Positions 10,106 through 43,053 of a stretch of 64,000 nucleotides of DNA are shown here, piece after piece. Made by a program: the position numbers and the translations under genes. Where the stretch lies: the NCBI RefSeq assembly GCF_010183535.1, contig NC_071331.1:1860001-1924000 (forward strand), written 5' to 3'. Position 1 is the stretch's first letter. Every line of letters starts with the position of its first letter. Under the pieces are notes generated by a model, which was given only the letters and a program-made list of their open reading frames with translations, searched no databases and had not been told where the DNA came from. Origin of the DNA: Caenorhabditis remanei. Lineage: Eukaryota > Nematoda > Chromadorea > Rhabditida > Rhabditidae.

Positions 10106-11587
10106 GCGTGCGGTGCTAATAGCATTTACATTCTTCTTACCACTGTTTTTGCTCTGCTTATTTTTTTCGTGTAAAATATAGAGACTAGCGGAAGTTGCGT
10201 GAAGTCCCGACATGGAACCACGTGAAACGCGTTCTTTCAAATAGCTGATAACTATCATTTTCTTTTTCCCGTCATGGCGTCACTCTCTATAACTACTATC
10301 GTTCCCGCCGACAGTTCACTAAATAGTAATGGTGCTGCTTTTTCTGTTCCCGGTGATTCCACCTCCACCTCGGACGCTGTACGACGGTTTCGAGATCGTC
10401 TGGGTATCAGGTCAAATGGTCGAAGTCAAATGGGTATAGAAGAAGAGAATCGGATGGTTGGGAAGCGCCGTAGGCGCTGTAACACCTAGAAGGGTGGTGT
10501 GGAAAAGGAGGTTTAGTCGCCGTTAGGCGACGTGAACCGACTGGTCAGTTTAAACTGATAGTCATTTATACTATTCACGTCAACTAGTCGAAAGGAAATG
10601 ATTATCGATATAGTCATAATCATTTTAGAAATGACGAAAACGATAGTCGATTCAGCTGTTTCGTCAAAACTTTTAAAAAATAGTCGAAATAGTACAAACG
10701 TAAATAGCCGAAACGTGAGTATTCAGAGCAGAAAAAAGGAAGAATGTCAGAAAAATTTTAAAATGAAAATTCATTTTCTCAGTCATTTACGTCGTTTTAA
10801 TAATTGTTTTTTATCGGAATTAATCATTTACGTCGTTTCGATAGTTGTTTTTTCATTTCCGATAGTCAAATTACACTGTGTTTTTTAAATTTTGATATTT
10901 TGATTATCATTTTACGTCATTAATCGCGTGACGAAAAATGACTAACTAATGACTAGGAACTCTATTTTACCTCATGAGGACCAAACTATACTTTTTCAAC
11001 TGACACGCTAACATCTAATCGTTGAAACAGGATGATTATGCAATTCTGTTAATTTTTATCCCAATTATTTATCTTTTATGATACAATGAAAAGCCAAAAA
11101 AATTTATTGAGTTTTGAGGGTTAGGTCCTGAAGCAATGATAGGTATGTTGCACAAAATAATTACAATGACCGTCAATTAAGAATTGGATGCTAGCGTAAC
11201 TTAAATTAATTTTCAGAAACAAAAATGTTCAACTACTCTCAAATACATAATTCACTGTTTTCCGATGAACCTATCCGGAATTTTCGTTTTTGATCTGGTG
11301 CAGAATCTTTTTTTGTGATTAGTAATAGCTTTTCCGTGGGACTGCTATCAATTTATTCCTGTACATAAATAGATTGCTCTGTGGGACCCGAACACATGAC
11401 TGAACGCGCATGGGTACAAAACCGCAACCGGCTGAGCTACACGGCCGAGAACGCGGTCGCCCACTCGGGGCTGTTATAAATGTGGGTGCTTCTCAATCAC
11501 AATTTCGATCACAATTTTTGCGTTCTATCCTCCGTTACAGTGAGTTTTTGAATTGACACCGTCGTTTTTTTTTGCCAATATTGAATG
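10106..11587. other. Intergenic DNA with repeats and a tRNA-like fragment
   Basis: An ORF at 10274-10489 (71 aa, rich in S/T then R/E) has a fair coding look but no partner exon and runs into the two-hairpin repeat, so I do not call it a gene. At 11376-11460 the minus strand carries a tRNA-like A box (GTGTAGCTCAGCCGG) and B box (GTGTTCGGGTCCC). The acceptor stem does not pair, so it is read as a tRNA-derived SINE or pseudogene. The rest is AT-rich with no gene seen. Confidence 0.4.
11582..11587. repeat. Left target-site duplication of the palindromic Polinton
   Basis: TGAATG directly abuts the left terminus (AGTAGTATGG) and is repeated exactly at 30423-30428 next to the right terminus. Six-base duplications are the rule for Polinton/Maverick insertion by their retroviral-type integrase. 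The joined empty site would read ATATTGAATGCATGTC. Confidence 0.9.
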
Positions 11588-12700
11588 AGTAGTATGGTAG
11601 GTGAAATTTACCATGATGTCGTGAAATTTACCATGAGATTTTGTGAATGACGGCATTCGCGCTTGGCTTGAGACCGAAGGCTAGCCTGAGGCCTGGCCAG
11701 AGTGAGAGCAAAACAGAGCCGAAAAATACGCTGAAGGTGCGCCAGATGATTGGACCTGTAGGGTCACATGGTAAAGTTCACGGTATCTAGCCTTCACTAA
11801 GCTATGAATTTCGCCATGAGATGCAAGGTGGCCATCCATAGGCACCCATATCAAAGGTTAGCCAGACCCGAGGTCAGAGGGAGAGCAAAAAGAAGCCAAA
11901 AATGTGCCGAAGGCGTGCCAGCAGGCCTGACCTATAGGGTCATATGGCAAATTGACGACATTCAGCCTAACATCGGGTGAAGGTAATTTTGCCATGAGGT
12001 GCTGAAAGACTAGCCACTGACAACCAGCTTTAAGGCACCATCAGGTTCTCAGGGGTTCAAAAACTAACCAGAGCGAAGTCACTCACAGAGCTAAAAAACG
12101 CGTCGAAGGCGAGCCATATGGGTAAATTACCGACATCTGAATCACCGGTTTTGTGGTGATAATTCTACCATGAGATTGAAACATGACAAGAGCTCCAGGA
12201 TCGAAACCTGACCAGAGCACGTCTTATGGCCGAATTTCATCACAAGATATAGCGTCTTATGAGCGCCAGCAGGTAAGTTAAGAACCGTCTTTCAGTAGTT
12301 TCAGATTTGACCAAGACCTAAAGGCCATCAAGGTGAGTTCGCCTGTTTTTCTGGTGATAGTTTTCATACATAGCGGGTCTATGGGGTGATAATTGCACAA
12401 TCAAAAACCAAATTCCAAATTTTTCTTTTCTATTGTCTCTCTGAGCTGTTAAGAATTGGAGAGACCCACGCCTCACACAACCAGGCAGGAACTTGGGCGA
12501 GTTGAGGGCAAAGGTAATGGTGGTCATTGTCTTAGGCTGTTTTCGTCATTTTTATGGCGCATATATTGTGTAGAGAGCCACAAGCACATGCGATTTCAAT
12601 AAAATTTCATTTGTTTTTCATTAATTATCAACATTTTTGCTGTTTTATTCTTTTTAAAAAAACCAAATTATAGGAAAAGGAAACGGACAGACAATAGCAG
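11588..12700. repeat. Left terminal non-coding region with ~190-bp degenerate repeats
   Basis: Two direct copies of GTGAAATTTACCATGA lie just inside the terminus (11602-11637). Then come three degenerate tandem units (about 11660-11846, 11847-12039 and 12040-12200) sharing, in order, CCAGA.., AGAGC.AAAAA, GAAGGCG.GCCA, ATGG.AAATT.., GACATTC and GCCATGAG. Repeated subterminal units of this sort could be replication-initiation or packaging sites; that is inference. The rest up to gene A is AT-rich and includes the AATAAA for gene A. Confidence 0.7.
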
Positions 12701-12703
12701 TAT

Positions 12704-13259
12704 TTAGTTTTGAAGGGTATCAGCATTTGGTTGAGGAGAGATTGGCGATGTCGACTGTGGCAGGTTTTTACATGAAGAGCACGATGAGCTGAAAGATTTG
12801 AACAAATATTAACAAAGATAATGATTGTTACCTCGGAACTCTGGCAATAAACAGTTCAGAAATTGGATAGAAGCGGCCATACTTATCCTTCACAACAAAT
12901 TGTTCATCAGTAATTTTATCCCTGCTCAGGGCGTTGGTATAGTCAAGCAGGTTAACACCGTCTTGAACAGAGGGAACTTCACTTGGGTACTTGGGAATCA
13001 CATCAGGCCATTCAATAATTCGACTGTCTTTTTTATAGAAAATGGCTTCATCTCTTGCCATTAGATCCATTGTGAATCGTACATGAGCAGTATGCTGCAT
13101 GAGATTTGAAGGCACACACAAAGGACGATATCTTATTTCTCTGTAAGCACGAAATAGTTGACGACGACTTGTATACTGTTTGTCTCGAATGTCCTGAAGA
13201 GGGTCCATGCAATTGCAGTTGTTACCATGGTTACCGGATTGTTTCAATTCTTGGGGCAT
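12704..13259 (-). CDS. Protein A, small Polinton-encoded protein of unknown function (left copy)
   Basis: Two exons, 13259-12832 and 12788-12704, give 170 aa (intron 12831-12789, GT..AG, phase 2). The start ATG lies 10 bases after a TTTTTACAG acceptor, so a 5' leader intron or spliced-leader addition is likely. Protein features: an N-terminal CNC motif, an R/Y-rich helix-like stretch at 30-45, a central RYRPLC...DEAIFY block, and an exon-1 terminus reading YPISELFIARVPR. It is followed by a Ser/Pro/Cys-rich tail with a CSSC pair. It is paralogous to protein B, with the same block order and the same intron position and phase. Transcription diverges from the polymerase across about 370 bases. 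I do not recognise the family; there is no signal peptide or membrane segment. Confidence 0.85.
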
Positions 13260-13536
13260 TGTTGAAAATCTGTAAAAACAATTATAGAAAAGGAAGAGCC
13301 CAGAATAAAGGCACCTACCACTATGACGTAATAAATCACGAATGACACGATTATTTCACGTGACGGTAGAAAATATTGAAAAATAGAATGAGAGAGTACA
13401 CAGAGAAGAGACGTGGAGAACAAAGAGTGGTTAGAGAAATGATGACGTCATCATCCAAAAAGTAACAGCTGACTTTCGTTGAGGGGGATTCGAGAAATTC
13501 ATAATTTGGGGCTCATTTTCACATTTTTACCGGATG

Positions 13537-13627
13537 GTAAGTGGTGACCTATTTCTGAGCTCTCTTGTTTTTTCTCTTGCATTTCTTTTCTTCATTTTTT
13601 TCTATTCTTCAGCTTTTTTTTTTTCAG
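13537..13627 (+). promoter_or_regulatory. 5' leader intron of the polymerase gene (left)
   Basis: GTAAGT at 13537 and a T11-CAG acceptor ending at 13627 define a probable leader intron just upstream of the polymerase ATG at 13630. An ATG directly before the donor cannot be the start: after splicing it would meet TGA in the second downstream codon. The T-tract is 11 long here and 12 in the right arm, the only length difference I found between the arms. Confidence 0.65.
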
Positions 13628-13629
13628 TT

Positions 13630-16600
13630 ATGAAACGCAAAGCGCTCAACACTCACAATTCCCTAGGAGGACCACCTCCACCAAGCAGACTTGAACCGAA
13701 GGCGAAAATGACAAAGAAAAAACCAGAAAGTCGATTAGTTGGAAAAGAAGAAGAAGAAATCAAAGATCACCCAAGTACGGAAAGAATCGACCAGAGAAAA
13801 TATCAAAATCAACCATCAACCAGTTCCCCTCAGAATCAAGGAGAATTTTCAGAAGAAAAGGAAAGACCCTCAAAATGCGCAAAATGCGATGCTACACAAG
13901 CCAGAATAGTTTCGAAGCAGAGACTGAAGCGTAAGTCATAATGTGGATATAAATAATTTTAATTATTCATTTCAGATGGCAGGGGATCACGACAAAAAAC
14001 ACGATTCCGAGAATATGAAAGAAGCGAGACGTTTCCAACAGCCGAGGAAGAAGAGTTCTTCACAGAAAATGTGATAACTTCTAATGAACCACACTTTCGC
14101 AGACACAATAACCAGTTTCTTATTTCGGATACGGTTAGGATGAAATTCACCAATCTTGATGAAGTTAAAGACAACAAGATGCTTCATGTTCATGTGGCTA
14201 AACTTTTAGACATTTTTATCCGCAGAATGCTCAAAAAAGCTGGAGGAAATTTGAAAACAACCAAATATTGGCTTCAGTAAGTTTTTATAAGTTCCAATTT
14301 TTGCTGATGAGTAATTTTACAGATTGAACCATGATGGCTACACCGATAACGATGGCTTCTTCGTAACTCACAAAACATATGCCGTGGCGGATGGAGGGGC
14401 TATCATGAATACAATAGCAAAACAAATGCAATCAAATAAAGAGCTACGTTTAGATGAAAGCTTTACTGTTGCTATGAACGTTTTCAAGGATAAACAAGCA
14501 CGACTACGAGGCCGGGGAACACATAATACTCGAAAAACTGATAAAATCGAAAAAATTAGAAAAGAAATATTGGTAAGGCATATTATCTTTTGTCAAATTA
14601 TAATACTTTTCATAACAGAAACAACATTTTGGCGTTAGCCTCTGCAGGATTACGGGAATGAGTCATTGTCTACCAAAGGCACTTGCACTAGGAAAACTGG
14701 AAAGTGATATACAAACCACGACCAACGGAGACCAAAAACAGAAAATGGAAAAGTTTTATCGAAGTCTCGTAAGACCAGAGGTACTCTTGACATTTGATTG
14801 TTTGTAATATGTGTTTTTACAGATAACGTTTACATTCAAAAGCGAAGTTCAAGGAAAACTTGCCAGACAGCTTTTGGCCGATGCAGGGATGGATGTGAAC
14901 AAAGAGGAGCATGACCGAAAAGATCTTCAAGAGCTTGCAAAATATCTTTCAAACTATCAAATAATATTATGGACAGCGAACAATCAACATGCCGTCCCAA
15001 CTGAAGAAAAGCGATACAACCAGGATGGAGACGGGTTCATTGGATTATTTTATTATGAAGGTCATTATGAACACGTCACCCACACCAAAGGAAAACATGC
15101 ATCAAGGTAAGCTACCATCTTATCCCAAAGAAGATGTTTTTCAGATTTTGTTTCCAATGCTCTACTTTCGACGACGACCAACACTACCGAAAATGTAAAG
15201 CCAAATGCAAGAGATGTGGCAGCACAGGATGCAAACACGAAGATGAGAACATTTATTGCAAAATTTGTAAAATTTACTTTCGAAGTAAAAATTGTTTTGA
15301 TGCCCATCTCACTGCACAATCAAAGAAGGGAATACCGCATTGCAAGAAATATAGCAGGTGACTAATCAATTTGACCAACATTACTAAAGGCTTACAGATG
15401 CGAAAATTGTAATATAATTGATAGAGCAGAGAGGATTCGTGGAGAAACACACGTCTGTAAAGCAAAGGACTTCTGTTCTATATGCAGGGAGAAAGCATTG
15501 AAAGGACATACTTGTGCCCACCACGTCCCTGACGAGAAGGAAAAGTTGAAGAAGCGAGAAAACCAAACGCAATGGGCCATTATCGTCTATGATATGGAAT
15601 GTATTGTGTCGGAGTCAGGAGAATTCAATGGTAAGGGACATCAACATTCAACGTTTAAATTCTTCTTTCAGGACATGTTGAAAGAGGGCCTAAGCACAAA
15701 CCCAACTTTATTTGCGTAAGAATGATTTGCAGTGATTGTCGAGGAGAGGCAGGATGTCAATTATGTTTTCAACCATGGACCTACAGCTACAAGGATTTTC
15801 CGCCTTTCAAAAATAACAAACACGATTCTCCATTAGCTAGTTTTGCAGATTTCCTGCTACATAATCCGCGGGCAGCGGGTGCTTACATTATAGCACACAA
15901 TGGTGGAAGGTATGTTTCAGTAATAAACTTTTTCAATTTTCAGGAAATTTCCAGATATGACCATGTTATGTTGCTAGCAGAGCTCGATAGACAAGGAGGC
16001 ACAAAGGCAAAAGAACCAAAAATTTTACTGAATGGAATGACAATCATTACGGCAGAGTTTGAATATGAAAAAAGAAAGCTGCATTTTCGTGATTCGTTTC
16101 AATACTTGCAAATGGGACTAGCCAAAATGCCTGGAGCTTTTGGCCTGGAGGGCGAGGCAAAGGGCTTTTTTCCTCATCTATACAACCATCCAGACAATTA
16201 CAATAAGGAATTGAAGACTTTACCATCGAAAGAATACTATAGTCCACAATTCATGACACCATCCACAAGAAAGGAATTTGATGAGTGGTATGCCAAGTGC
16301 TATCATGATGGGTTCAAGCTACATGATGAGCTGCTAAAGTATTGCCAATCTGATGTACGTATTCTCACTTTAACGTTGATGGCTTTCATACAGGTAAGTA
16401 GACAAGGTTTTTATGAAACACTTTCTTGTTTTACAGATGTGTGAATCAACTTTCAATGGCTGGAACCCAATTGTGAATGGATGTACGATAGCGTCCTATG
16501 TCATGTTCGTATTGAAGCACGAATACATAAAAAAGGGAGATGTCGGATATATTCCCGAGAACGGTTATGGAGGAGGAAACAATTCAATGTTAGCGTTAAA

Positions 16601-18777
16601 GTATCTCCAATGGCTGGAGAAAATTGATCCAGCACTACATTTGAAGTACAAATTACGTGGAGGAGAAGTCAAAATTGAAGCAGATGGGCACTCTTACTAT
16701 GCAGACGCTTTCAATGAGGCCACAAATGAAGTTTTTGAGGTATTTTTTTGTATACGAACCACTACCCACACACACACACACACATTGACCCCAAGGAAAA
16801 CTGAACCTCACAACAAGTGAGGCGAAGGAAGCCTTTTTTCTCTATATTGCTCCGAATAATAACAATTTTCATGTAATTTTTCAGATTTATGGATGTGTAT
16901 GGCACGGGTGCCCAAAGTGTTATCCGGATCGTGACAAGAAATGTCCAATGAAACCCAACAAGACAATGGAAGATTTGTATAAGGAAACCATAATGAGAGA
17001 AGAAGCTATTCAGAATGAGGGATTCAATATCAGTGCTGTTTGGGAATGTGAAATATACGAACAGATGGAGAAAGATAGAGAGATGCAAAAATTCTTTGAA
17101 CTGGTAAGTTGAAATCAATAATTAAAATGACTGAGTCGTTTTTAGAATAAGTACGACCAAAGGCTTAAGCCTCGTGAAGCATTATATGGAGGAAGAACAC
17201 AAGCATTTCGTTCAATGGCAGCAGCATTCGACGATATGCTTCTGAGTTATTTTGATTTCAATAGCTTATACCCATATCTTAATGCGGGAGGCACAGCTTA
17301 CCCGCGAGGAAACCCTACTGTGGAGTTTGAAAACTTTCCCAGACTAGATGAACCGTTGAAACTGAAAGGTATGTCAACTTTTTTACCTTTTTATTAATAA
17401 TTTCATTTTTTAGGAATTGTGTTTTGTGATGTTCTGCCCCCACAAGATGCAGCCATGGGATATTTACCTCAGAAAATAATGAAGAAGCTCATGTTTGTTC
17501 TATGTAGAACGTGTGCGAATGATCAGAATATTGAAGGAAAGTGTACACACACCAAGGTCTCTGAACGATTTTTGACCGGAGTATGGTGCACAGATGAACT
17601 GAATAAGGCCATTTCCAAAGGGTACAAGGTACTCAAGTACCACGAAATCTGGCATTGGCCAGAAGAGGCATGGGTCAAAGGAGGATTCTTTGCTGATTAC
17701 ATCAAGCCATTATTGAAATTGAAGCATGAAAGCAGTGGATGGCCAAAGGAAAACATGACAGATGTGGAAAAGAAAGCATACATCTCAAGAATATGGGAGA
17801 TGGATGGAGTCAAACTGGATCACTCAAAAATTAAAAAGAACAAAGCATTGCGAAGCCTTTGCAAAATATTCCTAAACTCTGCCTGGGGTAAGTAGATATT
17901 TGTTATTTTCTAATGTTTTACTTTTCTTTTTTCAGGAAAGTTCGCACAAAATCCAATGAAGACCGAGACAAGACTCGTCTACAACACTGATGGCCTTACA
18001 ATGGCCAATTTTTTCAATGACCCCAATTTTGAACCGACAGGAATGCTTCCTTATGGAGAGCACAAGTATTTCATATCAAGAAGGCCCAAGAAAGATTTTC
18101 TCAAGGCATCACCATTTACAAATCTTGCTATCGCGGCAATCACAACATGTGCGGCCAGATTAAGACTTACTGAAGCTATAGAGAGAGTTGGAATAGAGAA
18201 TATGATTTATTGTGGTAAGTGAATAAATGCTAGAAAGAATATAATTATCACGTTTTCAGATACCGACTCTGTGATTTTCAAACAGAAGAAAGACAGCGAC
18301 CCTCTGGGGGACCTCAAAGGAGACAATTTGGGCTACTTAACTAATGAAATTCCACCAGGGAATGAACTGGTTGAAGCCGTAGCGATGGCTCCAAAAGTTT
18401 ATGCGTTGAAGATAAGACACAAGGATGGCAGCTACAACTATACAGTCAAAGCAAAAGGAATGTGTTTGAACAGTGGAAACACAGGAAGTATCAACTTTGA
18501 CACTATGAAAGAGAGTGTGAGTATCAGATGCGTATTATTTTGGCAAACTTATTCTTTTCAGATGAATACATTTATTCGAGATGGTATAGTAGCACCCATG
18601 GAGGGTGAGATGCTGACGTTCAAGAGAGGTGATAACGCGCTGGATGGTCTTTGGACATGCGCAATGAAGAAGCAACTCAACCCAAGGATGGATAAGGGAC
18701 ACTATGTGGATGGCGTTGTAGCACCATTTGGGCAACTCCCAGGAAACATACAATTGATCAATGATTATCCTTTCTGA
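13630..18777 (+). CDS. Protein-primed family-B DNA polymerase with N-terminal zinc and OTU-like regions (left copy)
   Basis: Sixteen coding exons join in frame into 1463 aa: 13630-13930, 13976-14276, 14323-14572, 14619-14780, 14823-15106, 15145-15357, 15398-15630, 15672-15909, 15955-16393, 16437-16739, 16885-17103, 17146-17368, 17414-17887, 17936-18214, 18260-18516, 18562-18777. All introns are GT-AG; one contains a short CA repeat. Polymerase motifs: ExoI YDMEC (D569, E571), ExoII HNGGRYD (657-663), ExoIII YCQSDV (D794), PolA FDFNSLYP (D1018), PolB NSAWGK (1210-1215), PolC YCDTDS (1305-1310). All catalytic residues are present. The ~220- and ~190-residue gaps before and after PolA leave room for TPR1/TPR2 inserts typical of protein-primed enzymes. 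Residues about 430-550 hold many CxxC/CxxH pairs (zinc ribbons). C301 in SHCLPKAL and H419 in GHYEHV recall an OTU-type cysteine protease dyad, which is tentative. The N-terminus is basic and low-complexity. No stop or frameshift is seen, so the enzyme should be able to copy its own element. Confidence 0.9.
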
Positions 18778-19785
18778 CATTGTAAATAAATATTGAATAT
18801 AATTTTTCGTGAATATAGGAATATTTGACAGCAATTTGTGCACAATTCAAACACAATTCAAACACAATTTGCACAATCTTTGCACAATCTTTGCACAATT
18901 CAAACACAATTCAAACACAATCTTTACATGAAAAATTATACAGAAATCATTAACTTTTCAGTTAAAACGTGAAAAAATATTGAAATTTTACCTGTAAACA
19001 CACTAATATTCAAGTTTCCGAGGCCTGAATTTTAGAGGATCTGCAATATTTTATAGGTATGGATAGATATTTCTGAAGCGGGCACACATTTTCATCGATA
19101 GATGCAGATTTCTGGAGGCAAGAGGTGGCATTTTTGAAGGCCTAGTATACTTTTTAAGCACTGGGACACAGGTTATTGAGTCAGAAAGCTTACTTTTCAT
19201 GTGCATTTACACTTTTTGAGAGCATATATGGTCACTTTGGAAGGGTTACTATACATTTTAAGCGCTGGCATGCACATTTTAGCTAATGATTATGTACATT
19301 TTAGCCAATGATTATGTACATTTTCAAAGTTCGCGCCTATGTAAAACCTAATTTTCAATGGTAGACAATGCCTTGTTGTGATGGGGCCTCACGAAAAAAC
19401 GCTGCTTTCTAGTAGAAAAATAGAAAAAATTACTGACATGAGCACTGTTTTCGAATTAATACTATTAATGTGATGGCGAAGCATAGGTATTGATGAGACT
19501 TTGATATGTGAAATTCACTATGCTGAGAAGAATCAGGCATATGTTTGAAGAATGAGCACATATATTCCAAAGCAGAGGCCTGTCAACCCGTGTACATGCA
19601 CATAAATCGCGCACAGACACATGTTCTGGGGGCGCGTAAGAACATTATTTATGATGACTAGTCACATTTTGAGAAAAAATGGAGAAATTTTTGGCATTAT
19701 TGCGTAAAGAATAGAACAATAACACAATTTTATTGACGAATTTAATAAAATCAGAAAAATAAGGAAAAAATATGTCACAACACAA
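18778..19785. other. Intergenic interval in the left arm with 11-bp tandem repeats
   Basis: This lies between the convergent 3' ends of the polymerase gene and gene B. At 18841-18923 there is a tandem array of 11-base units alternating CACAATTCAAA and CACAATCTTTG. At 19275-19325 a TATGTACATTTTAGC-like unit is duplicated. No ORF of note is present. The first bases after the polymerase stop contain AATAAA (18784), its likely polyadenylation signal. Confidence 0.6.
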
Positions 19786-20499
19786 TTATTCATTCATTGA
19801 TCTGACAATTGGTAGCATATTGTTCATCTCGTTCCGGAGCAACATGTCACGAGGGCGGTGAGCGCTACGAGGAATTGAAGCATCAGACGAAGGCGTAGAC
19901 CATCTCATGCAGCTGTCTCGTTTCTTCTGAGCACGAACTTCTCTATCGCTTTGCATAGCCGCTGGTCTGTAACATATTATGTATTGGAGGTGAAGAGAAT
20001 GTTGGGGTTACCTTGGAACTCTGACAATGAACAACTCCGAAACAGGGTAAGCAGCACCACATCCATTGATCACGACATATTGATTGTCATCAGTCTTATA
20101 GCACCATTTAGCCACAAAGTATTGGAAAAGGTTGAGGTTCCCCTGTCCACATTGAACTTCTGTTGGCCGAAGTGGAGTCACATAACAACCAACCAAGACC
20201 TCCCCAGCTCGGCTGTAAAACACGGCTTGATCAGAAGTCAGTTGGTCCAAACAACCACGAATGTATTCCAAATCTGTTCGGCGATTAACATCAGGACAAA
20301 GAGGAAGGTATCCAATTTTCTTCAAAGCGCAATACATCTTGTGAATTTCCTTGTAAGTGGATTGTTTGAATTCACGAAAACGATTCTCGCATACTTGATG
20401 GTTCAGCGTCTTTAAGTCGGAAGCATTGCTGTCTAGTTTGGGTGTCACATCTCTCAAATCTTCGCATTTATCGAAACCTTCGCACGAATCCGAATCCAT
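19786..20499 (-). CDS. Protein B, small Polinton-encoded paralogue of protein A (left copy)
   Basis: Two exons, 20499-20012 and 19966-19786, give 222 aa with a phase-2 intron (20011-19967). I chose the ATG at 20499; the frame is open 10 codons further but only from a TTG. Features: an acidic N-terminus (MDSDSCEGFDKCEDL), a helix-like block around CENRFREFKQSTYKEIHKMY, then GYLPLCPDV, a DQAVFY block, and an exon-1 end reading YPVSELFIVRVPR. The last two blocks align with protein A at the same splice position. Exon 2 adds a basic tail (about 60 aa). Family unknown. It differs from the right copy by one residue (T here, I there). It is transcribed away from the element centre and convergent with the polymerase. 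Confidence 0.85.
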
Positions 20500-20955
20500 A
20501 AAGTCACAATAAAATCTCACGAGAGCCAAGAATATAGATAACCTCTCTTGATGGCGTCAAAATTTAAGAATGAATAAAGTCAAAAAATGAAGAACTATAG
20601 GAGAGAGAGTGAGAGACGCAGAGAAAACCATGTACATAAATCAAAAATTTGCAAAACCCCACTACTTTTATTTCGCGCACGTGTTCATTCACCCGGTCAT
20701 ATTGTGGGAGACATACCTACATCATAGCAGCATATAAATCCTAAAAGACATTTCTCGATTTAGAAATTTTAAATCATATCTCCATATTACTCTTTTTCAC
20801 ATTATCCATTCATTCATGTACTTTTTAAAACTTAAAAAAAAATATTTATTTATTATTTTTATTTTGAAAATTTTCCGGAAAATATCATACTTCCCCCATT
20901 TTATTCAACACATCGAAATTGTTCACCAACTGACACACAACGGCGAGTAGATTGG

Positions 20956-21053
20956 AAAGAAAATTTCCGGGGCGGGCCACGCCAACTGTCGTACGCAAAT
21001 TTCCGGGTGTGCCATTTTCTTCGAGGGCGTACGTTAAATTCGGGTCTCTCATC
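20956..21053. other. Unique 98-bp centre of the palindrome
   Basis: This is the only asymmetric stretch between the arms, which end AGATTGG and restart CCAATCT. It is GC-richer than the arms and holds three related direct motifs: AAATTTCCGGGG, CGTACGCAAATTTCCGGG and CGTACGTTAAATTCGGG. It may be the remnant of the sequence where a strand switch occurred, or a recombination, replication or promoter element serving the two diverging B genes about 450-550 bases away on each side. None of these roles is demonstrated. Confidence 0.7.
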
Positions 21054-21509
21054 CCAATCTACTCGCCGTTGTGTGTCAGTTGGTGAACAATTTCGATGTG
21101 TTGAATAAAATGGGGGAAGTATGATATTTTCCGGAAAATTTTCAAAATAAAAATAATAAATAAATATTTTTTTTTAAGTTTTAAAAAGTACATGAATGAA
21201 TGGATAATGTGAAAAAGAGTAATATGGAGATATGATTTAAAATTTCTAAATCGAGAAATGTCTTTTAGGATTTATATGCTGCTATGATGTAGGTATGTCT
21301 CCCACAATATGACCGGGTGAATGAACACGTGCGCGAAATAAAAGTAGTGGGGTTTTGCAAATTTTTGATTTATGTACATGGTTTTCTCTGCGTCTCTCAC
21401 TCTCTCTCCTATAGTTCTTCATTTTTTGACTTTATTCATTCTTAAATTTTGACGCCATCAAGAGAGGTTATCTATATTCTTGGCTCTCGTGAGATTTTAT
21501 TGTGACTTT

Positions 21510-22223
21510 ATGGATTCGGATTCGTGCGAAGGTTTCGATAAATGCGAAGATTTGAGAGATGTGACACCCAAACTAGACAGCAATGCTTCCGACTTAAAGA
21601 CGCTGAACCATCAAGTATGCGAGAATCGTTTTCGTGAATTCAAACAATCCACTTACAAGGAAATTCACAAGATGTATTGCGCTTTGAAGAAAATTGGATA
21701 CCTTCCTCTTTGTCCTGATGTTAATCGCCGAACAGATTTGGAATACATTCGTGGTTGTTTGGACCAACTGACTTCTGATCAAGCCGTGTTTTACAGCCGA
21801 GCTGGGGAGGTCTTGGTTGGTTGTTATGTGACTCCACTTCGGCCAACAGAAGTTCAATGTGGACAGGGGAACCTCAACCTTTTCCAATACTTTGTGGCTA
21901 AATGGTGCTATAAGATTGATGACAATCAATATGTCGTGATCAATGGATGTGGTGCTGCTTACCCTGTTTCGGAGTTGTTCATTGTCAGAGTTCCAAGGTA
22001 ACCCCAACATTCTCTTCACCTCCAATACATAATATGTTACAGACCAGCGGCTATGCAAAGCGATAGAGAAGTTCGTGCTCAGAAGAAACGAGACAGCTGC
22101 ATGAGATGGTCTACGCCTTCGTCTGATGCTTCAATTCCTCGTAGCGCTCACCGCCCTCGTGACATGTTGCTCCGGAACGAGATGAACAATATGCTACCAA
22201 TTGTCAGATCAATGAATGAATAA
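21510..22223 (+). CDS. Protein B, small Polinton-encoded paralogue of protein A (right copy)
   Basis: Mirror copy of 19786-20499. Exons 21510-21997 and 22043-22223 encode 222 aa. It differs by one substitution at 21916, giving isoleucine in the KIDDNQ segment where the left copy has threonine. The frame is intact, with an AATAAA about 50 bases after the stop. It is transcribed outward from the palindrome centre towards the 3' end of the right polymerase gene. Function unknown; see the left copy for the conserved blocks shared with protein A. Confidence 0.85.
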
Positions 22224-23231
22224 TTGTGTTGTGACATATTTTTTCCTTATTTTTCTGATTTTATTAAATTCGTCAATAAAATTGTGTTATTGTTCTATTC
22301 TTTACGCAATAATGCCAAAAATTTCTCCATTTTTTCTCAAAATGTGACTAGTCATCATAAATAATGTTCTTACGCGCCCCCAGAACATGTGTCTGTGCGC
22401 GATTTATGTGCATGTACACGGGTTGACAGGCCTCTGCTTTGGAATATATGTGCTCATTCTTCAAACATATGCCTGATTCTTCTCAGCATAGTGAATTTCA
22501 CATATCAAAGTCTCATCAATACCTATGCTTCGCCATCACATTAATAGTATTAATTCGAAAACAGTGCTCATGTCAGTAATTTTTTCTATTTTTCTACTAG
22601 AAAGCAGCGTTTTTTCGTGAGGCCCCATCACAACAAGGCATTGTCTACCATTGAAAATTAGGTTTTACATAGGCGCGAACTTTGAAAATGTACATAATCA
22701 TTGGCTAAAATGTACATAATCATTAGCTAAAATGTGCATGCCAGCGCTTAAAATGTATAGTAACCCTTCCAAAGTGACCATATATGCTCTCAAAAAGTGT
22801 AAATGCACATGAAAAGTAAGCTTTCTGACTCAATAACCTGTGTCCCAGTGCTTAAAAAGTATACTAGGCCTTCAAAAATGCCACCTCTTGCCTCCAGAAA
22901 TCTGCATCTATCGATGAAAATGTGTGCCCGCTTCAGAAATATCTATCCATACCTATAAAATATTGCAGATCCTCTAAAATTCAGGCCTCGGAAACTTGAA
23001 TATTAGTGTGTTTACAGGTAAAATTTCAATATTTTTTCACGTTTTAACTGAAAAGTTAATGATTTCTGTATAATTTTTCATGTAAAGATTGTGTTTGAAT
23101 TGTGTTTGAATTGTGCAAAGATTGTGCAAAGATTGTGCAAATTGTGTTTGAATTGTGTTTGAATTGTGCACAAATTGCTGTCAAATATTCCTATATTCAC
23201 GAAAAATTATATTCAATATTTATTTACAATG
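22224..23231. other. Intergenic interval in the right arm with 11-bp tandem repeats
   Basis: Mirror of 18778-19785. The 11-base tandem array is at 23086-23168 on the opposite strand. No ORF of note. I found no difference from the left copy here. Confidence 0.6.
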
Positions 23232-26200
23232 TCAGAAAGGATAATCATTGATCAATTGTATGTTTCCTGGGAGTTGCCCAAATGGTGCTACAACGCCATC
23301 CACATAGTGTCCCTTATCCATCCTTGGGTTGAGTTGCTTCTTCATTGCGCATGTCCAAAGACCATCCAGCGCGTTATCACCTCTCTTGAACGTCAGCATC
23401 TCACCCTCCATGGGTGCTACTATACCATCTCGAATAAATGTATTCATCTGAAAAGAATAAGTTTGCCAAAATAATACGCATCTGATACTCACACTCTCTT
23501 TCATAGTGTCAAAGTTGATACTTCCTGTGTTTCCACTGTTCAAACACATTCCTTTTGCTTTGACTGTATAGTTGTAGCTGCCATCCTTGTGTCTTATCTT
23601 CAACGCATAAACTTTTGGAGCCATCGCTACGGCTTCAACCAGTTCATTCCCTGGTGGAATTTCATTAGTTAAGTAGCCCAAATTGTCTCCTTTGAGGTCC
23701 CCCAGAGGGTCGCTGTCTTTCTTCTGTTTGAAAATCACAGAGTCGGTATCTGAAAACGTGATAATTATATTCTTTCTAGCATTTATTCACTTACCACAAT
23801 AAATCATATTCTCTATTCCAACTCTCTCTATAGCTTCAGTAAGTCTTAATCTGGCCGCACATGTTGTGATTGCCGCGATAGCAAGATTTGTAAATGGTGA
23901 TGCCTTGAGAAAATCTTTCTTGGGCCTTCTTGATATGAAATACTTGTGCTCTCCATAAGGAAGCATTCCTGTCGGTTCAAAATTGGGGTCATTGAAAAAA
24001 TTGGCCATTGTAAGGCCATCAGTGTTGTAGACGAGTCTTGTCTCGGTCTTCATTGGATTTTGTGCGAACTTTCCTGAAAAAAGAAAAGTAAAACATTAGA
24101 AAATAACAAATATCTACTTACCCCAGGCAGAGTTTAGGAATATTTTGCAAAGGCTTCGCAATGCTTTGTTCTTTTTAATTTTTGAGTGATCCAGTTTGAC
24201 TCCATCCATCTCCCATATTCTTGAGATGTATGCTTTCTTTTCCACATCTGTCATGTTTTCCTTTGGCCATCCACTGCTTTCATGCTTCAATTTCAATAAT
24301 GGCTTGATGTAATCAGCAAAGAATCCTCCTTTGACCCATGCCTCTTCTGGCCAATGCCAGATTTCGTGGTACTTGAGTACCTTGTACCCTTTGGAAATGG
24401 CCTTATTCAGTTCATCTGTGCACCATACTCCGGTCAAAAATCGTTCAGAGACCTTGGTGTGTGTACACTTTCCTTCAATATTCTGATCATTCGCACACGT
24501 TCTACATAGAACAAACATGAGCTTCTTCATTATTTTCTGAGGTAAATATCCCATGGCTGCATCTTGTGGGGGCAGAACATCACAAAACACAATTCCTAAA
24601 AAATGAAATTATTAATAAAAAGGTAAAAAAGTTGACATACCTTTCAGTTTCAACGGTTCATCTAGTCTGGGAAAGTTTTCAAACTCCACAGTAGGGTTTC
24701 CTCGCGGGTAAGCTGTGCCTCCCGCATTAAGATATGGGTATAAGCTATTGAAATCAAAATAACTCAGAAGCATATCGTCGAATGCTGCTGCCATTGAACG
24801 AAATGCTTGTGTTCTTCCTCCATATAATGCTTCACGAGGCTTAAGCCTTTGGTCGTACTTATTCTAAAAACGACTCAGTCATTTTAATTATTGATTTCAA
24901 CTTACCAGTTCAAAGAATTTTTGCATCTCTCTATCTTTCTCCATCTGTTCGTATATTTCACATTCCCAAACAGCACTGATATTGAATCCCTCATTCTGAA
25001 TAGCTTCTTCTCTCATTATGGTTTCCTTATACAAATCTTCCATTGTCTTGTTGGGTTTCATTGGACATTTCTTGTCACGATCCGGATAACACTTTGGGCA
25101 CCCGTGCCATACACATCCATAAATCTGAAAAATTACATGAAAATTGTTATTATTCGGAGCAATATAGAGAAAAAAGGCTTCCTTCGCCTCACTTGTTGTG
25201 AGGTTCAGTTTTCCTTGGGGTCAATGTGTGTGTGTGTGTGTGGGTAGTGGTTCGTATACAAAAAAATACCTCAAAAACTTCATTTGTGGCCTCATTGAAA
25301 GCGTCTGCATAGTAAGAGTGCCCATCTGCTTCAATTTTGACTTCTCCTCCACGTAATTTGTACTTCAAATGTAGTGCTGGATCAATTTTCTCCAGCCATT
25401 GGAGATACTTTAACGCTAACATTGAATTGTTTCCTCCTCCATAACCGTTCTCGGGAATATATCCGACATCTCCCTTTTTTATGTATTCGTGCTTCAATAC
25501 GAACATGACATAGGACGCTATCGTACATCCATTCACAATTGGGTTCCAGCCATTGAAAGTTGATTCACACATCTGTAAAACAAGAAAGTGTTTCATAAAA
25601 ACCTTGTCTACTTACCTGTATGAAAGCCATCAACGTTAAAGTGAGAATACGTACATCAGATTGGCAATACTTTAGCAGCTCATCATGTAGCTTGAACCCA
25701 TCATGATAGCACTTGGCATACCACTCATCAAATTCCTTTCTTGTGGATGGTGTCATGAATTGTGGACTATAGTATTCTTTCGATGGTAAAGTCTTCAATT
25801 CCTTATTGTAATTGTCTGGATGGTTGTATAGATGAGGAAAAAAGCCCTTTGCCTCGCCCTCCAGGCCAAAAGCTCCAGGCATTTTGGCTAGTCCCATTTG
25901 CAAGTATTGAAACGAATCACGAAAATGCAGCTTTCTTTTTTCATATTCAAACTCTGCCGTAATGATTGTCATTCCATTCAGTAAAATTTTTGGTTCTTTT
26001 GCCTTTGTGCCTCCTTGTCTATCGAGCTCTGCTAGCAACATAACATGGTCATATCTGGAAATTTCCTGAAAATTGAAAAAGTTTATTACTGAAACATACC
26101 TTCCACCATTGTGTGCTATAATGTAAGCACCCGCTGCCCGCGGATTATGTAGCAGGAAATCTGCAAAACTAGCTAATGGAGAATCGTGTTTGTTATTTTT

Positions 26201-28379
26201 GAAAGGCGGAAAATCCTTGTAGCTGTAGGTCCATGGTTGAAAACATAATTGACATCCTGCCTCTCCTCGACAATCACTGCAAATCATTCTTACGCAAATA
26301 AAGTTGGGTTTGTGCTTAGGCCCTCTTTCAACATGTCCTGAAAGAAGAATTTAAACGTTGAATGTTGATGTCCCTTACCATTGAATTCTCCTGACTCCGA
26401 CACAATACATTCCATATCATAGACGATAATGGCCCATTGCGTTTGGTTTTCTCGCTTCTTCAACTTTTCCTTCTCGTCAGGGACGTGGTGGGCACAAGTA
26501 TGTCCTTTCAATGCTTTCTCCCTGCATATAGAACAGAAGTCCTTTGCTTTACAGACGTGTGTTTCTCCACGAATCCTCTCTGCTCTATCAATTATATTAC
26601 AATTTTCGCATCTGTAAGCCTTTAGTAATGTTGGTCAAATTGATTAGTCACCTGCTATATTTCTTGCAATGCGGTATTCCCTTCTTTGATTGTGCAGTGA
26701 GATGGGCATCAAAACAATTTTTACTTCGAAAGTAAATTTTACAAATTTTGCAATAAATGTTCTCATCTTCGTGTTTGCATCCTGTGCTGCCACATCTCTT
26801 GCATTTGGCTTTACATTTTCGGTAGTGTTGGTCGTCGTCGAAAGTAGAGCATTGGAAACAAAATCTGAAAAACATCTTCTTTGGGATAAGATGGTAGCTT
26901 ACCTTGATGCATGTTTTCCTTTGGTGTGGGTGACGTGTTCATAATGACCTTCATAATAAAATAATCCAATGAACCCGTCTCCATCCTGGTTGTATCGCTT
27001 TTCTTCAGTTGGGACGGCATGTTGATTGTTCGCTGTCCATAATATTATTTGATAGTTTGAAAGATATTTTGCAAGCTCTTGAAGATCTTTTCGGTCATGC
27101 TCCTCTTTGTTCACATCCATCCCTGCATCGGCCAAAAGCTGTCTGGCAAGTTTTCCTTGAACTTCGCTTTTGAATGTAAACGTTATCTGTAAAAACACAT
27201 ATTACAAACAATCAAATGTCAAGAGTACCTCTGGTCTTACGAGACTTCGATAAAACTTTTCCATTTTCTGTTTTTGGTCTCCGTTGGTCGTGGTTTGTAT
27301 ATCACTTTCCAGTTTTCCTAGTGCAAGTGCCTTTGGTAGACAATGACTCATTCCCGTAATCCTGCAGAGGCTAACGCCAAAATGTTGTTTCTGTTATGAA
27401 AAGTATTATAATTTGACAAAAGATAATATGCCTTACCAATATTTCTTTTCTAATTTTTTCGATTTTATCAGTTTTTCGAGTATTATGTGTTCCCCGGCCT
27501 CGTAGTCGTGCTTGTTTATCCTTGAAAACGTTCATAGCAACAGTAAAGCTTTCATCTAAACGTAGCTCTTTATTTGATTGCATTTGTTTTGCTATTGTAT
27601 TCATGATAGCCCCTCCATCCGCCACGGCATATGTTTTGTGAGTTACGAAGAAGCCATCGTTATCGGTGTAGCCATCATGGTTCAATCTGTAAAATTACTC
27701 ATCAGCAAAAATTGGAACTTATAAAAACTTACTGAAGCCAATATTTGGTTGTTTTCAAATTTCCTCCAGCTTTTTTGAGCATTCTGCGGATAAAAATGTC
27801 TAAAAGTTTAGCCACATGAACATGAAGCATCTTGTTGTCTTTAACTTCATCAAGATTGGTGAATTTCATCCTAACCGTATCCGAAATAAGAAACTGGTTA
27901 TTGTGTCTGCGAAAGTGTGGTTCATTAGAAGTTATCACATTTTCTGTGAAGAACTCTTCTTCCTCGGCTGTTGGAAACGTCTCGCTTCTTTCATATTCTC
28001 GGAATCGTGTTTTTTGTCGTGATCCCCTGCCATCTGAAATGAATAATTAAAATTATTTATATCCACATTATGACTTACGCTTCAGTCTCTGCTTCGAAAC
28101 TATTCTGGCTTGTGTAGCATCGCATTTTGCGCATTTTGAGGGTCTTTCCTTTTCTTCTGAAAATTCTCCTTGATTCTGAGGGGAACTGGTTGATGGTTGA
28201 TTTTGATATTTTCTCTGGTCGATTCTTTCCGTACTTGGGTGATCTTTGATTTCTTCTTCTTCTTTTCCAACTAATCGACTTTCTGGTTTTTTCTTTGTCA
28301 TTTTCGCCTTCGGTTCAAGTCTGCTTGGTGGAGGTGGTCCTCCTAGGGAATTGTGAGTGTTGAGCGCTTTGCGTTTCAT
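23232..28379 (-). CDS. Protein-primed family-B DNA polymerase (right copy)
   Basis: Exact mirror of the left polymerase gene: the start codon is at 28379-28377 and the stop ends at 23232. The same 16 exons apply, with each coordinate equal to 42009 minus the left one (for example the PolA exon 24641-24863 and the PolC exon 23493-23749). All exonuclease (YDMEC, HNGGRYD, YCQSDV) and polymerase (FDFNSLYP, NSAWGK, YCDTDS) motifs are present and the predicted protein is identical, 1463 aa. The only neighbouring difference is one extra base in the leader-intron homopolymer (28385-28396). With two intact copies and no sign of decay, the duplication is either very recent or kept uniform by gene conversion. 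Confidence 0.9.
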
Positions 28380-28750
28380 AACTGAAAAAAAAAAAAGCTG
28401 AAGAATAGAAAAAAATGAAGAAAAGAAATGCAAGAGAAAAAACAAGAGAGCTCAGAAATAGGTCACCACTTACCATCCGGTAAAAATGTGAAAATGAGCC
28501 CCAAATTATGAATTTCTCGAATCCCCCTCAACGAAAGTCAGCTGTTACTTTTTGGATGATGACGTCATCATTTCTCTAACCACTCTTTGTTCTCCACGTC
28601 TCTTCTCTGTGTACTCTCTCATTCTATTTTTCAATATTTTCTACCGTCACGTGAAATAATCGTGTCATTCGTGATTTATTACGTCATAGTGGTAGGTGCC
28701 TTTATTCTGGGCTCTTCCTTTTCTATAATTGTTTTTACAGATTTTCAACA

Positions 28751-29306
28751 ATGCCCCAAGAATTGAAACAATCCGGTAACCATGGTAACAACTGCAATTG
28801 CATGGACCCTCTTCAGGACATTCGAGACAAACAGTATACAAGTCGTCGTCAACTATTTCGTGCTTACAGAGAAATAAGATATCGTCCTTTGTGTGTGCCT
28901 TCAAATCTCATGCAGCATACTGCTCATGTACGATTCACAATGGATCTAATGGCAAGAGATGAAGCCATTTTCTATAAAAAAGACAGTCGAATTATTGAAT
29001 GGCCTGATGTGATTCCCAAGTACCCAAGTGAAGTTCCCTCTGTTCAAGACGGTGTTAACCTGCTTGACTATACCAACGCCCTGAGCAGGGATAAAATTAC
29101 TGATGAACAATTTGTTGTGAAGGATAAGTATGGCCGCTTCTATCCAATTTCTGAACTGTTTATTGCCAGAGTTCCGAGGTAACAATCATTATCTTTGTTA
29201 ATATTTGTTCAAATCTTTCAGCTCATCGTGCTCTTCATGTAAAAACCTGCCACAGTCGACATCGCCAATCTCTCCTCAACCAAATGCTGATACCCTTCAA
29301 AACTAA
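28751..29306 (+). CDS. Protein A, small Polinton-encoded protein of unknown function (right copy)
   Basis: Mirror of 12704-13259. Exons 28751-29178 and 29222-29306 encode 170 aa, identical to the left copy. A TTTTTACAG acceptor ends at 28740, ten bases before the ATG. A possible leader-intron donor (GTAGGT) is at 28692. The conserved end of exon 1 (SELFIARVPR) and the phase-2 intron match protein B. Divergent from the right polymerase gene. Function not recognised. Confidence 0.85.
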
Positions 29307-30422
29307 ATACTGCTATTGTCTGTCCGTTTCCTTTTCCTATAATTTGGTTTTTTTTAAAAGAATAAAACAGCAAAAATGTTGATAATTAATGAAAAACAAA
29401 TGAAATTTTATTGAAATCGCATGTGCTTGTGGCTCTCTACACAATATATGCGCCATAAAAATGACGAAAACAGCCTAAGACAATGACCACCATTACCTTT
29501 GCCCTCAACTCGCCCAAGTTCCTGCCTGGTTGTGTGAGGCGTGGGTCTCTCCAATTCTTAACAGCTCAGAGAGACAATAGAAAAGAAAAATTTGGAATTT
29601 GGTTTTTGATTGTGCAATTATCACCCCATAGACCCGCTATGTATGAAAACTATCACCAGAAAAACAGGCGAACTCACCTTGATGGCCTTTAGGTCTTGGT
29701 CAAATCTGAAACTACTGAAAGACGGTTCTTAACTTACCTGCTGGCGCTCATAAGACGCTATATCTTGTGATGAAATTCGGCCATAAGACGTGCTCTGGTC
29801 AGGTTTCGATCCTGGAGCTCTTGTCATGTTTCAATCTCATGGTAGAATTATCACCACAAAACCGGTGATTCAGATGTCGGTAATTTACCCATATGGCTCG
29901 CCTTCGACGCGTTTTTTAGCTCTGTGAGTGACTTCGCTCTGGTTAGTTTTTGAACCCCTGAGAACCTGATGGTGCCTTAAAGCTGGTTGTCAGTGGCTAG
30001 TCTTTCAGCACCTCATGGCAAAATTACCTTCACCCGATGTTAGGCTGAATGTCGTCAATTTGCCATATGACCCTATAGGTCAGGCCTGCTGGCACGCCTT
30101 CGGCACATTTTTGGCTTCTTTTTGCTCTCCCTCTGACCTCGGGTCTGGCTAACCTTTGATATGGGTGCCTATGGATGGCCACCTTGCATCTCATGGCGAA
30201 ATTCATAGCTTAGTGAAGGCTAGATACCGTGAACTTTACCATGTGACCCTACAGGTCCAATCATCTGGCGCACCTTCAGCGTATTTTTCGGCTCTGTTTT
30301 GCTCTCACTCTGGCCAGGCCTCAGGCTAGCCTTCGGTCTCAAGCCAAGCGCGAATGCCGTCATTCACAAAATCTCATGGTAAATTTCACGACATCATGGT
30401 AAATTTCACCTACCATACTACT
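29307..30422. repeat. Right terminal non-coding region with ~190-bp degenerate repeats
   Basis: Mirror of 11588-12700. Three degenerate tandem units lie at about 29810-30350, and two TGGTAAATTTCAC copies just inside the end. The terminus reads CCATACTACT at 30422 and is followed by the TGAATG duplication. No further genes. Confidence 0.7.
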
Positions 30423-30428
30423 TGAATG
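30423..30428. repeat. Right target-site duplication of the palindromic Polinton
   Basis: TGAATG, an exact repeat of 11582-11587. It shows that the 18.8-kb palindrome entered as one unit and was not assembled in place from two separate insertions. Confidence 0.9.
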
Positions 30429-42153: not shown

Positions 42154-43053
42154 CACTTTTGTCTGTTCACGTCATTTTCTGTTCTTTTTTCAAAGTTTAT
42201 TCAAAAGTACAGAATCGGTATGGATACCGATTTTGTACCAAGAAATTCCTCCAGATTTGGTATTCATACCTATTCTGTACTCTGCATAAAAGATCACGTG
42301 AAAAAAGTTTTCTCCAAGTTTATTCGAAAGTACAGAAACGGTATCGATACCGATTTTGTACCAAACAACAATTCTGTATAAAAGGTCACGTGAAATATTG
42401 AAAATCCAAAATTTCAAAGTGTCAAATTTTATTTATGATTATTTTCGCTTACGTGGATTCAAATTTGATGTTCATCAAGTGGATAAACTCACCAAAATGA
42501 CAATTTTTGAGGAAAAGTTACCTAGATTCTGTAATTAGGTTTTGATCAACTTACTTTACCTTCTCTTATTTAAAAAGAAAACACATTTTCAAACCTTTTT
42601 ATGCAAATTTCATTAAAACGGACGTTTTTAATGTTGTTGAATAAGAAAAGGTGAAGTTGATCAAAATCAAATTACAGAATCTAGGTAACTTTTCCTCAAA
42701 AATTGTCATTTTGGCCAGTTTATCCACTAGTTGAACATCAAATTTGAATCCACGTAAGCGAAAATAATCATAAATAAAATTTGACACTTTGAAATTGTGG
42801 ATTTTCAATTCTTCACGTGACCTTTTATACAGAACTTACAATGGTACAGAATTGGTATCGATACCGATTCTGTACTTTCGAATAAACTTGGAGAAAAAAC
42901 TTTTTTCACGTGATCTTTTATGCAGAGTACAGAATAGGTATGAATACCAAATCTGGAGGAGTTTCTTGGTACAGAACCGGTATCCATACCGATTCTGTAC
43001 TTTCGAATAAACTTTGAAAAAAGAACAGAAAATGACGTGAACAGACAAAAGTG
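42154..43053. repeat. 900-bp foldback with nested palindromes
   Basis: Long inverted repeat: 42154-42555 pairs with about 42640-43053, with a short loop near 42600. The outer arms match CACTTTTGTCTGTTCACGTC. Inside each arm are smaller palindromes of the form GTACAGAATCGGTATNGATACCG..GTACC and several CACGTGA boxes. Non-coding; the ORFs found in both arms are mirror shadows. Probably a foldback (MITE-like) transposon. Confidence 0.7.

What the first reader, a model, noticed from the sequence alone, without database searches (positions are those of the whole stretch)
11588..30422. An 18.8-kb Polinton-class element that is one giant palindrome
Seen: two 9.37-kb arms, nearly identical, around a 98-bp centre; AG...CT termini; one perfect 6-bp duplication (TGAATG) outside. 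Known: Polintons have AG/CT ends, 6-bp duplications and normally short to ~1-kb terminal inverted repeats enclosing a single gene set. Here the whole element is inverted repeat. The single pair of duplications means the palindrome integrated as a unit. I know of no described Polinton with this architecture, though I could not search.
Basis: partly seen in the sequence, partly recalled or inferred. Interest (0 to 1): 0.95.

Follow-up and report, generated by a model that had tools for sequence, protein, structure and literature searches.

The report
Palindromic Polinton family in a nematode
In a roundworm genome, a virus-like jumping gene of the Polinton (Maverick) class exists as a family of near-perfect giant palindromes that have inserted as complete units many times, which suggests a self-complementary satellite that may copy itself with its own polymerase but borrow another element's integrase to insert.

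Summary
Window 11588-30422 is an 18,835-bp palindrome: arms of 9,368 and 9,369 bp with three differences, a 98-bp centre, AG...CT ends and a 6-bp duplication TGAATG. It is a family, not one oddity. The same genome (Caenorhabditis remanei, from protein names and contig length) holds 11 relatives, this one included, with both ends located, in two subfamilies about 82% alike (18.7-18.8 and about 21-22 kb). Nine of 11 have perfect, mutually different 6-bp duplications. Within each copy the outer arms are 99.96-100% identical; different copies usually differ by 2-18%. Each arm carries an intron-bearing family-B DNA polymerase under purifying selection and two small paralogous ORFs. None of 91 integrase matches in the genome lies in a copy. 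Ordinary Mavericks with integrase exist elsewhere; one has a 10-bp end shared with this family and a 6-bp duplication. In both subfamilies the centre is bounded by a second pair of Polinton-type ends. Other polymerase lineages also occur as inverted pairs; the midpoints of two were read and both are palindromic. Best reading: an integrase-dependent 'snap-back' satellite of Mavericks. The anatomy is well supported; the replication cycle and origin are inferred. New variant of a known kind.

The parts
11582..11587 (.). left target-site duplication TGAATG
30423..30428 (.). right target-site duplication TGAATG
11588..20955 (+). left arm of the palindrome (9,368 bp)
21054..30422 (-). right arm of the palindrome (9,369 bp), inverted copy of the left arm
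20956..21053 (.). 98-bp unpaired centre
20946..21063 (.). central block with its own Polinton-type ends AGTAGATTGG...CCAATCTACT; first 62 bp 81% like the end of a 1,012-bp mini-element elsewhere in the genome
13630..18777 (+). left copy of the family-B DNA polymerase gene, several exons with short introns (first ATG and last stop as read from frames; splice sites not tested)
   Evidence: PF03175 in three pieces; motif strings; dN/dS
23232..28379 (-). right copy of the polymerase gene
   Evidence: mirror of the left copy; PolB match at C4:1884117-1884608 -
12828..13259 (-). small ORF near the outer end, left copy (143 aa)
28751..29182 (+). small ORF near the outer end, right copy
20008..20499 (-). 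small ORF near the centre, left copy, read from the ATG; the public protein P0001 has a further 3' part
21510..22001 (+). small ORF near the centre, right copy
18828..18951 (+). short repeats behind the polymerase, 87% over 124 bp to the same place in the ordinary Maverick at C40

Best explanation
A non-autonomous, palindromic ('snap-back') satellite family of Mavericks/Polintons. Shown: it inserts as a whole palindrome with 6-bp duplications; its polymerase and centre ORF are kept by selection; the arms of a copy are (nearly) identical although copies differ; no integrase was found in it; Polinton-type ends lie both outside and at the centre. Inferred: integrase from ordinary Mavericks inserts it in trans; its own (presumably protein-primed) polymerase copies it from the ends; a displaced single strand folds on itself into a roughly 9.4-kb duplex hairpin with a loop of about 100 nt and one open end that is again an origin; replication around the loop restores the palindrome, and repair or copy-back keeps the arms alike. 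Inferred origin: a fold-back in the polymerase half of an ordinary Maverick at short inverted repeats, here the ends of a small nested Polinton-type element. My odds: satellite moved in trans 0.75; hairpin cycle 0.55; origin by fold-back at a nested end 0.45. The confidence given is for the satellite reading as a whole.
For: 9 of 11 copies with perfect, different 6-bp duplications. Arms 99.96-100% identical in 11 of 11 copies over the outer 5-6 kb, against 82-98% between most copies. dN/dS 0.04-0.39 in 13 polymerase pieces, 0.07 in the centre ORF. 0 of 91 integrase matches inside copies, while an ordinary Maverick at C40 has integrase, a 10-bp end AGTAGATTGG also seen in this family, and a 6-bp duplication. 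Polymerase pieces match that Maverick's polymerase in the same order. Inner ends AGTAGWWWGG in both subfamilies. Other lineages in inverted pairs, 2 of 2 midpoints palindromic.
Against: No extrachromosomal hairpin, transcript or transposition was seen; none could be tested. Only the first 10 bp of the ends are shared with the C40 Maverick by the comparisons made, so movement by its integrase is a guess. The PolB was not shown to be protein-primed here. A degenerate integrase could be missed: one 231-aa query was used. One of the two other midpoints read has no Polinton-type end at its boundary. Near-identical arms could also be kept by conversion after insertion.
Confidence: 0.72

Rival explanations
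1. Assembly artefact: one arm was mirrored by missed adapters, chimeric reads or a misjoin.
For: Copies are near identical and one copy's left flank equals, over 355 bp, that of another copy and of contig C79; another copy ends beside a gap. No reads were available.
Against: A mirroring artefact would mirror the flanks too. Here 9 of 11 copies stop exactly at AG...CT ends with different perfect 6-bp duplications and different flanks. The arms of the window copy differ at three places.
Confidence: 0.04
2. Two ordinary Mavericks inserted next to each other head to head, with internal deletions.
For: Ordinary Mavericks are common in the genome: 17 of the 26 strongest integrase matches have a convergent polymerase marker nearby.
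Against: It would have to happen separately at every copy, leave one pair of duplications and give arms alike to 99.96-100% in 11 of 11 copies.
Confidence: 0.02
3. The palindrome is old in each place and the arms are kept alike by gene conversion after insertion, as in other genomic palindromes; the element has no hairpin cycle.
For: Conversion between palindrome arms is known in other genomes (recalled). Arms are alike in all 11 copies.
Against: One decayed insertion, seen on contigs C122 and C108, has arms at 99.46-99.72% over the main blocks, lower than intact copies. Four copies plus C79 are 99.5-100% alike across loci, so they spread recently as palindromes.
Confidence: 0.2
4. The palindrome arose by aberrant transposition, integrase joining the ends of a nested small element on sister DNA, not by a replication fold-back.
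For: The arms end inward exactly at 10 bp of a Polinton-type end in both subfamilies.
Against: The palindrome at C2:16.89 Mb has no AGTAG motif in the 301 bp read around its centre, and at C2:5.48 Mb the arms run about 21 bp past the motif; a fold-back at any short inverted repeat covers all cases.
Confidence: 0.2

Closest known systems
Polintons/Mavericks (RVE-integrase and family-B polymerase elements), here the ordinary Maverick at C40:50347-70726
   Same: Polymerase pieces in the same order and orientation (42-81% amino-acid identity), repeats behind the polymerase, 10-bp end of the AGTAGWWWGG type, 6-bp duplication
   Different: Palindrome instead of a single gene set with short terminal repeats; no integrase or helicase found; two small ORFs instead
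Snapback (self-complementary) subgenomes of adeno-associated virus (PMC8235507, passages seen)
   Same: One half of a parent genome doubled as an inverted repeat, able to fold on itself; dependent on helper functions
   Different: Those are made anew in virus stocks; this family is inherited in chromosomes, with genes under selection and its own insertions
Origin-dependent inverted-repeat amplification in yeast (PMC4689423, passages seen)
   Same: Short interrupted inverted repeats seed large inverted DNA through hairpin-ended molecules
   Different: Chromosomal amplification, not a mobile element with polymerase and target-site duplications
Palindromic ribosomal DNA of Tetrahymena (recalled, no call)
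   Same: Giant palindrome of about 21 kb grown from a short inverted repeat
   Different: Programmed in the somatic nucleus, not mobile

Membership tests
Polinton/Maverick | family-B DNA polymerase (protein-primed type) | tested here: met
   PF03175 in three arm pieces, two above the curated score; same order as in the C40 Maverick. That it is protein-primed was not tested.
Polinton/Maverick | 6-bp target-site duplication | tested here: met
   9 of 11 copies with both ends located
Polinton/Maverick | terminal inverted repeats with AG...CT ends | tested here: met
   here the repeat takes up nearly the whole element
Polinton/Maverick | retrovirus-like integrase | tested here: not met
   0 of 91 genome matches to a Maverick integrase lie in the copies
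Polinton/Maverick | capsid proteins, packaging ATPase, protease | tested here: inconclusive
   no such Pfam domain in 19 of 46 frames of 60 aa or more; fast-evolving capsid genes could be missed
Snapback (self-complementary) satellite genome | one half of a parent genome as an inverted repeat | tested here: met
   palindrome; polymerase half matches an ordinary Maverick in order; the direct parent was not found
Snapback (self-complementary) satellite genome | replicates as a hairpin with helper functions | not testable with these tools
   needs extrachromosomal DNA from worms

The most novel reading that the evidence does not exclude
Mavericks repeatedly give rise to self-complementary satellites, and these form a class of mobile element of their own: a hairpin genome, its own polymerase, hijacked integrase and perhaps hijacked capsids. 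In this genome such palindromes may rival ordinary polymerase-bearing Mavericks in number and may interfere with them, directly or as sources of double-stranded RNA.
Probability: 0.4. Interest if true: 0.92.

Novelty: new variant of a known kind. Interest (0 to 1): 0.83.

Why it matters
It gives Polintons an architecture that I did not find in the listings of eight paper searches: a chromosomally inherited snap-back genome with genes under selection. It would make the replication cycle of Polintons testable, because a palindromic genome predicts a specific single-strand hairpin and shared evolution of the arms. It would also offer a natural satellite, possibly interfering, system for animal Mavericks, and a candidate case of one Polinton moved by another.

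Tried and rejected
Assembly artefact: rejected for the family, though one copy looks misjoined and another ends beside a gap. Two Mavericks head to head: rejected. A complete Polinton: rejected, no integrase found.

Led nowhere: AlphaFold model of the centre ORF from three sequences had mean pLDDT 48 and pTM 0.36, so no fold search was run. Rfam gave no match in the window. One PolB piece against PDB sequences gave a single match at E 0.054, read as chance. PHROGs gave one DNA polymerase family for one of five proteins. The DNA fold of the centre (z -5.2) mostly reflects the 20-bp arm stem that I included.

Against or weak: the end ORF shows only mild constraint (dN/dS 0.57), and its frame holds one stop in the C1 copy over the compared stretch, which reaches upstream of the ATG. 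One zinc-finger piece had two open frames; I used the one that carries the Pfam match. Inverted polymerase pairs left out of my twelve: C4:24292175-24304038 (47% and 60% identity, integrase beside it) and C3:5190105/5191730 (unequal scores, stops). Six of the twelve match over only 51-57 residues at 33-43% identity.

Papers: Kapitonov and Jurka 2006, Widen and others 2023 and Jeong and others 2023 were not held, so a mention of palindromes there cannot be excluded. Searches listed only 15 of 44, 26 and 33 papers; I saw listings and starts of abstracts, and passages of PMC4642659, PMC8235507, PMC11071308, PMC3671162 and PMC4689423, no whole paper.

Full report
OBSERVATION. The window holds a near-perfect palindrome at 11588-30422: arms of 9,368 and 9,369 bp, 99.97% identical, with differences only at 12655, 13624 and 20093, around a 98-bp centre. 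The ends are AGTAGTATGG...CCATACTACT and TGAATG stands directly outside on both sides.

WHERE IT IS. The window is C4:1860001-1924000 of a genome of 130,466,896 bases in 186 contigs. Proteins matching the element are in public records as Caenorhabditis remanei GCK72 proteins, on a contig of 25,790,997 bases, the length of C4. The species name rests on that; the strain name PX506 is recalled.

A FAMILY. DNA searches of the same genome found relatives in inverted pairs (lower bounds). A second-subfamily copy read in full, C4:23723550-23745255 (21,706 bp), is a palindrome with arms of about 10.69 kb that differ by one gap and a centre of 321 bp. The copy C1:15148027-15166755 was seen throughout in overlapping pieces. 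For the other eight copies I read the outer 5-6 kb of each arm; their middles rest on mirrored matches. Eleven copies, the window's included, have both ends located. Nine have perfect 6-bp duplications, all different: TGAATG, AATATA, GATGAC, AACAAT, ATCGGA, AACCAA, GTCATT, TGAGAT, CTCCAT. Two do not: C4:5186589 has a broken right end beside a gap, and C2:1156706 has a left flank identical over 355 bp to that of C4:23723550 and of contig C79, which points to a misjoin between near-identical copies. Further partial or rearranged copies (C122, C108, C79, C4:20.27 Mb, C2:14.88 Mb) were not counted.

THE ARMS EVOLVE TOGETHER. In 11 of 11 copies the arms are 99.96-100% identical over the outer 5-6 kb. 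Between copies, identity is 91.6-98.0% within a subfamily, apart from four near-identical copies (99.97-100%) and contig C79 (99.5% to these), and 82-83% between subfamilies over the parts that align. A decayed insertion seen on contigs C122 and C108 has arms 99.72% (5,003 bp) and 99.46% (3,530 bp) identical, with a further 656 bp at 99.85%. The simplest reading is that arms are alike at insertion and then drift; one decayed insertion does not exclude conversion in place.

GENES. Each arm carries a polymerase gene of about 5.1 kb with short introns. PF03175 matches three pieces, two above the curated score, and motif strings of exonuclease and polymerase domains are present (labels recalled). 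Between the subfamilies, dN/dS is 0.04-0.39 in 13 polymerase pieces, with no stop in the compared frame, 0.07 in the centre ORF and 0.57 in the end ORF. The two small ORFs are paralogues, 30-34% identical. Protein searches with each found two clusters, all named C. remanei. In the genome the centre ORF also has weak matches outside the copies, on C43, C6:21.07 Mb and C2:0.85 Mb. Their function is unknown.

NO INTEGRASE; POSSIBLE HELPERS. C40:50347-70726 is an ordinary Maverick: end AGTAGATTGG, duplication CACAAA on both sides, Pif1-like helicase, polymerase, and integrase with chromodomain. I read only its left 9.85 kb and last 40 bp, so its capsid genes were not checked. Its integrase piece (231 aa) gave 91 matches in the genome; none lies in a palindromic copy, the partial ones included. 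Of the 26 strongest, 22 have an open frame of 350 aa or more, and 17 have a polymerase marker 1.2-2.1 kb away in convergent orientation. The polymerase pieces of the palindrome match the C40 polymerase in the same order at 42-81% amino-acid identity; 12 of 12 polymerase pieces tried matched and the two small ORFs did not. The repeats behind the polymerase match too (87% over 124 bp). So the arm corresponds to the polymerase half of a Maverick, with the helicase and the part from the integrase on absent.

THE CENTRE. In the window the arms end inward in AGTAGATTGG, so the centre is a 118-bp block with its own Polinton-type ends; in the second subfamily it is a 361-bp block with ends AGTAGTATGG...CCATACTACT. 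AGTAGWWWGG occurs twice in each left arm, at the outer end and here, and nowhere else in the window outside the element. Inner and outer ends are of opposite type in the two subfamilies, which I cannot explain. A separate 1,012-bp mini-element with duplication AATACC (L017:552-1563) matches the first 62 bp of the window's centre at 81% and shares its terminal few hundred bases with the C40 Maverick at 76-86%. So a small nested Polinton-type element probably lay where the fold-back happened.

RECURRENCE. A search with one polymerase piece gave 152 matches, 150 listed; I entered 123, dropping 27 further pieces of loci already entered. Neighbours within 25 kb were '+-' 27 times, '++' 5, '--' 5, '-+' 1. 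Of the 27, 13 belong to the family and 12 of the other 14 have equal bit scores on both sides. Two midpoints could be read: C2:5481522-5481922 has perfect 96-bp inverted edges around 209 bp, with an AGTAG motif 21 bp outside the boundary; C2:16889915-16890215 has inverted edges of 55-58 bp and no such motif. Two of two are palindromic at the centre; their full arms were not read. Two more pairs hold integrase fragments between the polymerases (C2:1.27 Mb, C4:3.92 Mb), as expected if the fold-back point varies along ordinary Mavericks.

MECHANISM. Shown: insertion as a unit, alike arms, selected polymerase, no integrase found, Polinton-type ends outside and at the centre. Inferred: integration in trans, protein-primed copying, refolding of a displaced strand into a full-length hairpin with the origin at its open end, and regeneration of the palindrome around the loop. 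Analogues are the snapback genomes of AAV (PMC8235507, passages) and hairpin-ended intermediates in yeast inverted amplification (PMC4689423, passages). That Polinton polymerases carry a terminal-protein domain is from PMC11071308 (passages) and was not tested here.

NOVELTY. Eight paper searches showed no title or abstract start describing a palindromic Polinton. The listings were partial and three key papers were not held. I class it as a new variant of a known kind.

Noticed in passing
window 32357-35707 (-): 1,116-aa open frame with helicase-type domains (AAA_12, AAA_19, Viral_helicase1) in a stretch of about 50% GC (32-38 kb) beside DNA of 31-40% GC; perhaps another foreign or mobile gene.
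   Followed up: no
L017:552-1563 (C4:19877154-19878165): A 1,012-bp mini-element with AGTAGATTGG...CCACACTACT ends and duplication AATACC, itself largely an inverted repeat, sharing ends with the C40 Maverick.
   Followed up: partly
C40:50347-70726 and C40:132225-151467: Two related Mavericks in inverted orientation on one 184,710-base contig.
   Followed up: partly
C6:183-215 kb, C25, C41, C184, C4:25.15 Mb, C5:28 kb: Polymerase fragments 79-86% like the window's recur, on C6 and C41 about 14.3 kb apart in the same direction, as in a large tandem array; C4 and C6 copies sit toward chromosome ends.
   Followed up: no
C43:3638-16303: Integrase and polymerase of an ordinary Maverick lie about 10 kb from weak matches to the centre ORF, a possible source of that ORF.
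   Followed up: no
C2:1156350-1156705, C4:23723195-23723549, C79:6851-7210: The same flank of 355 bp appears beside three near-identical copies, a likely misjoin in the assembly.
   Followed up: yes
window 61138-61704, 42154-43053 and 6211-6951: Smaller inverted repeats, and at 61138-61704 19-bp tandem repeats as well, unrelated to the palindrome as far as looked at.
   Followed up: no
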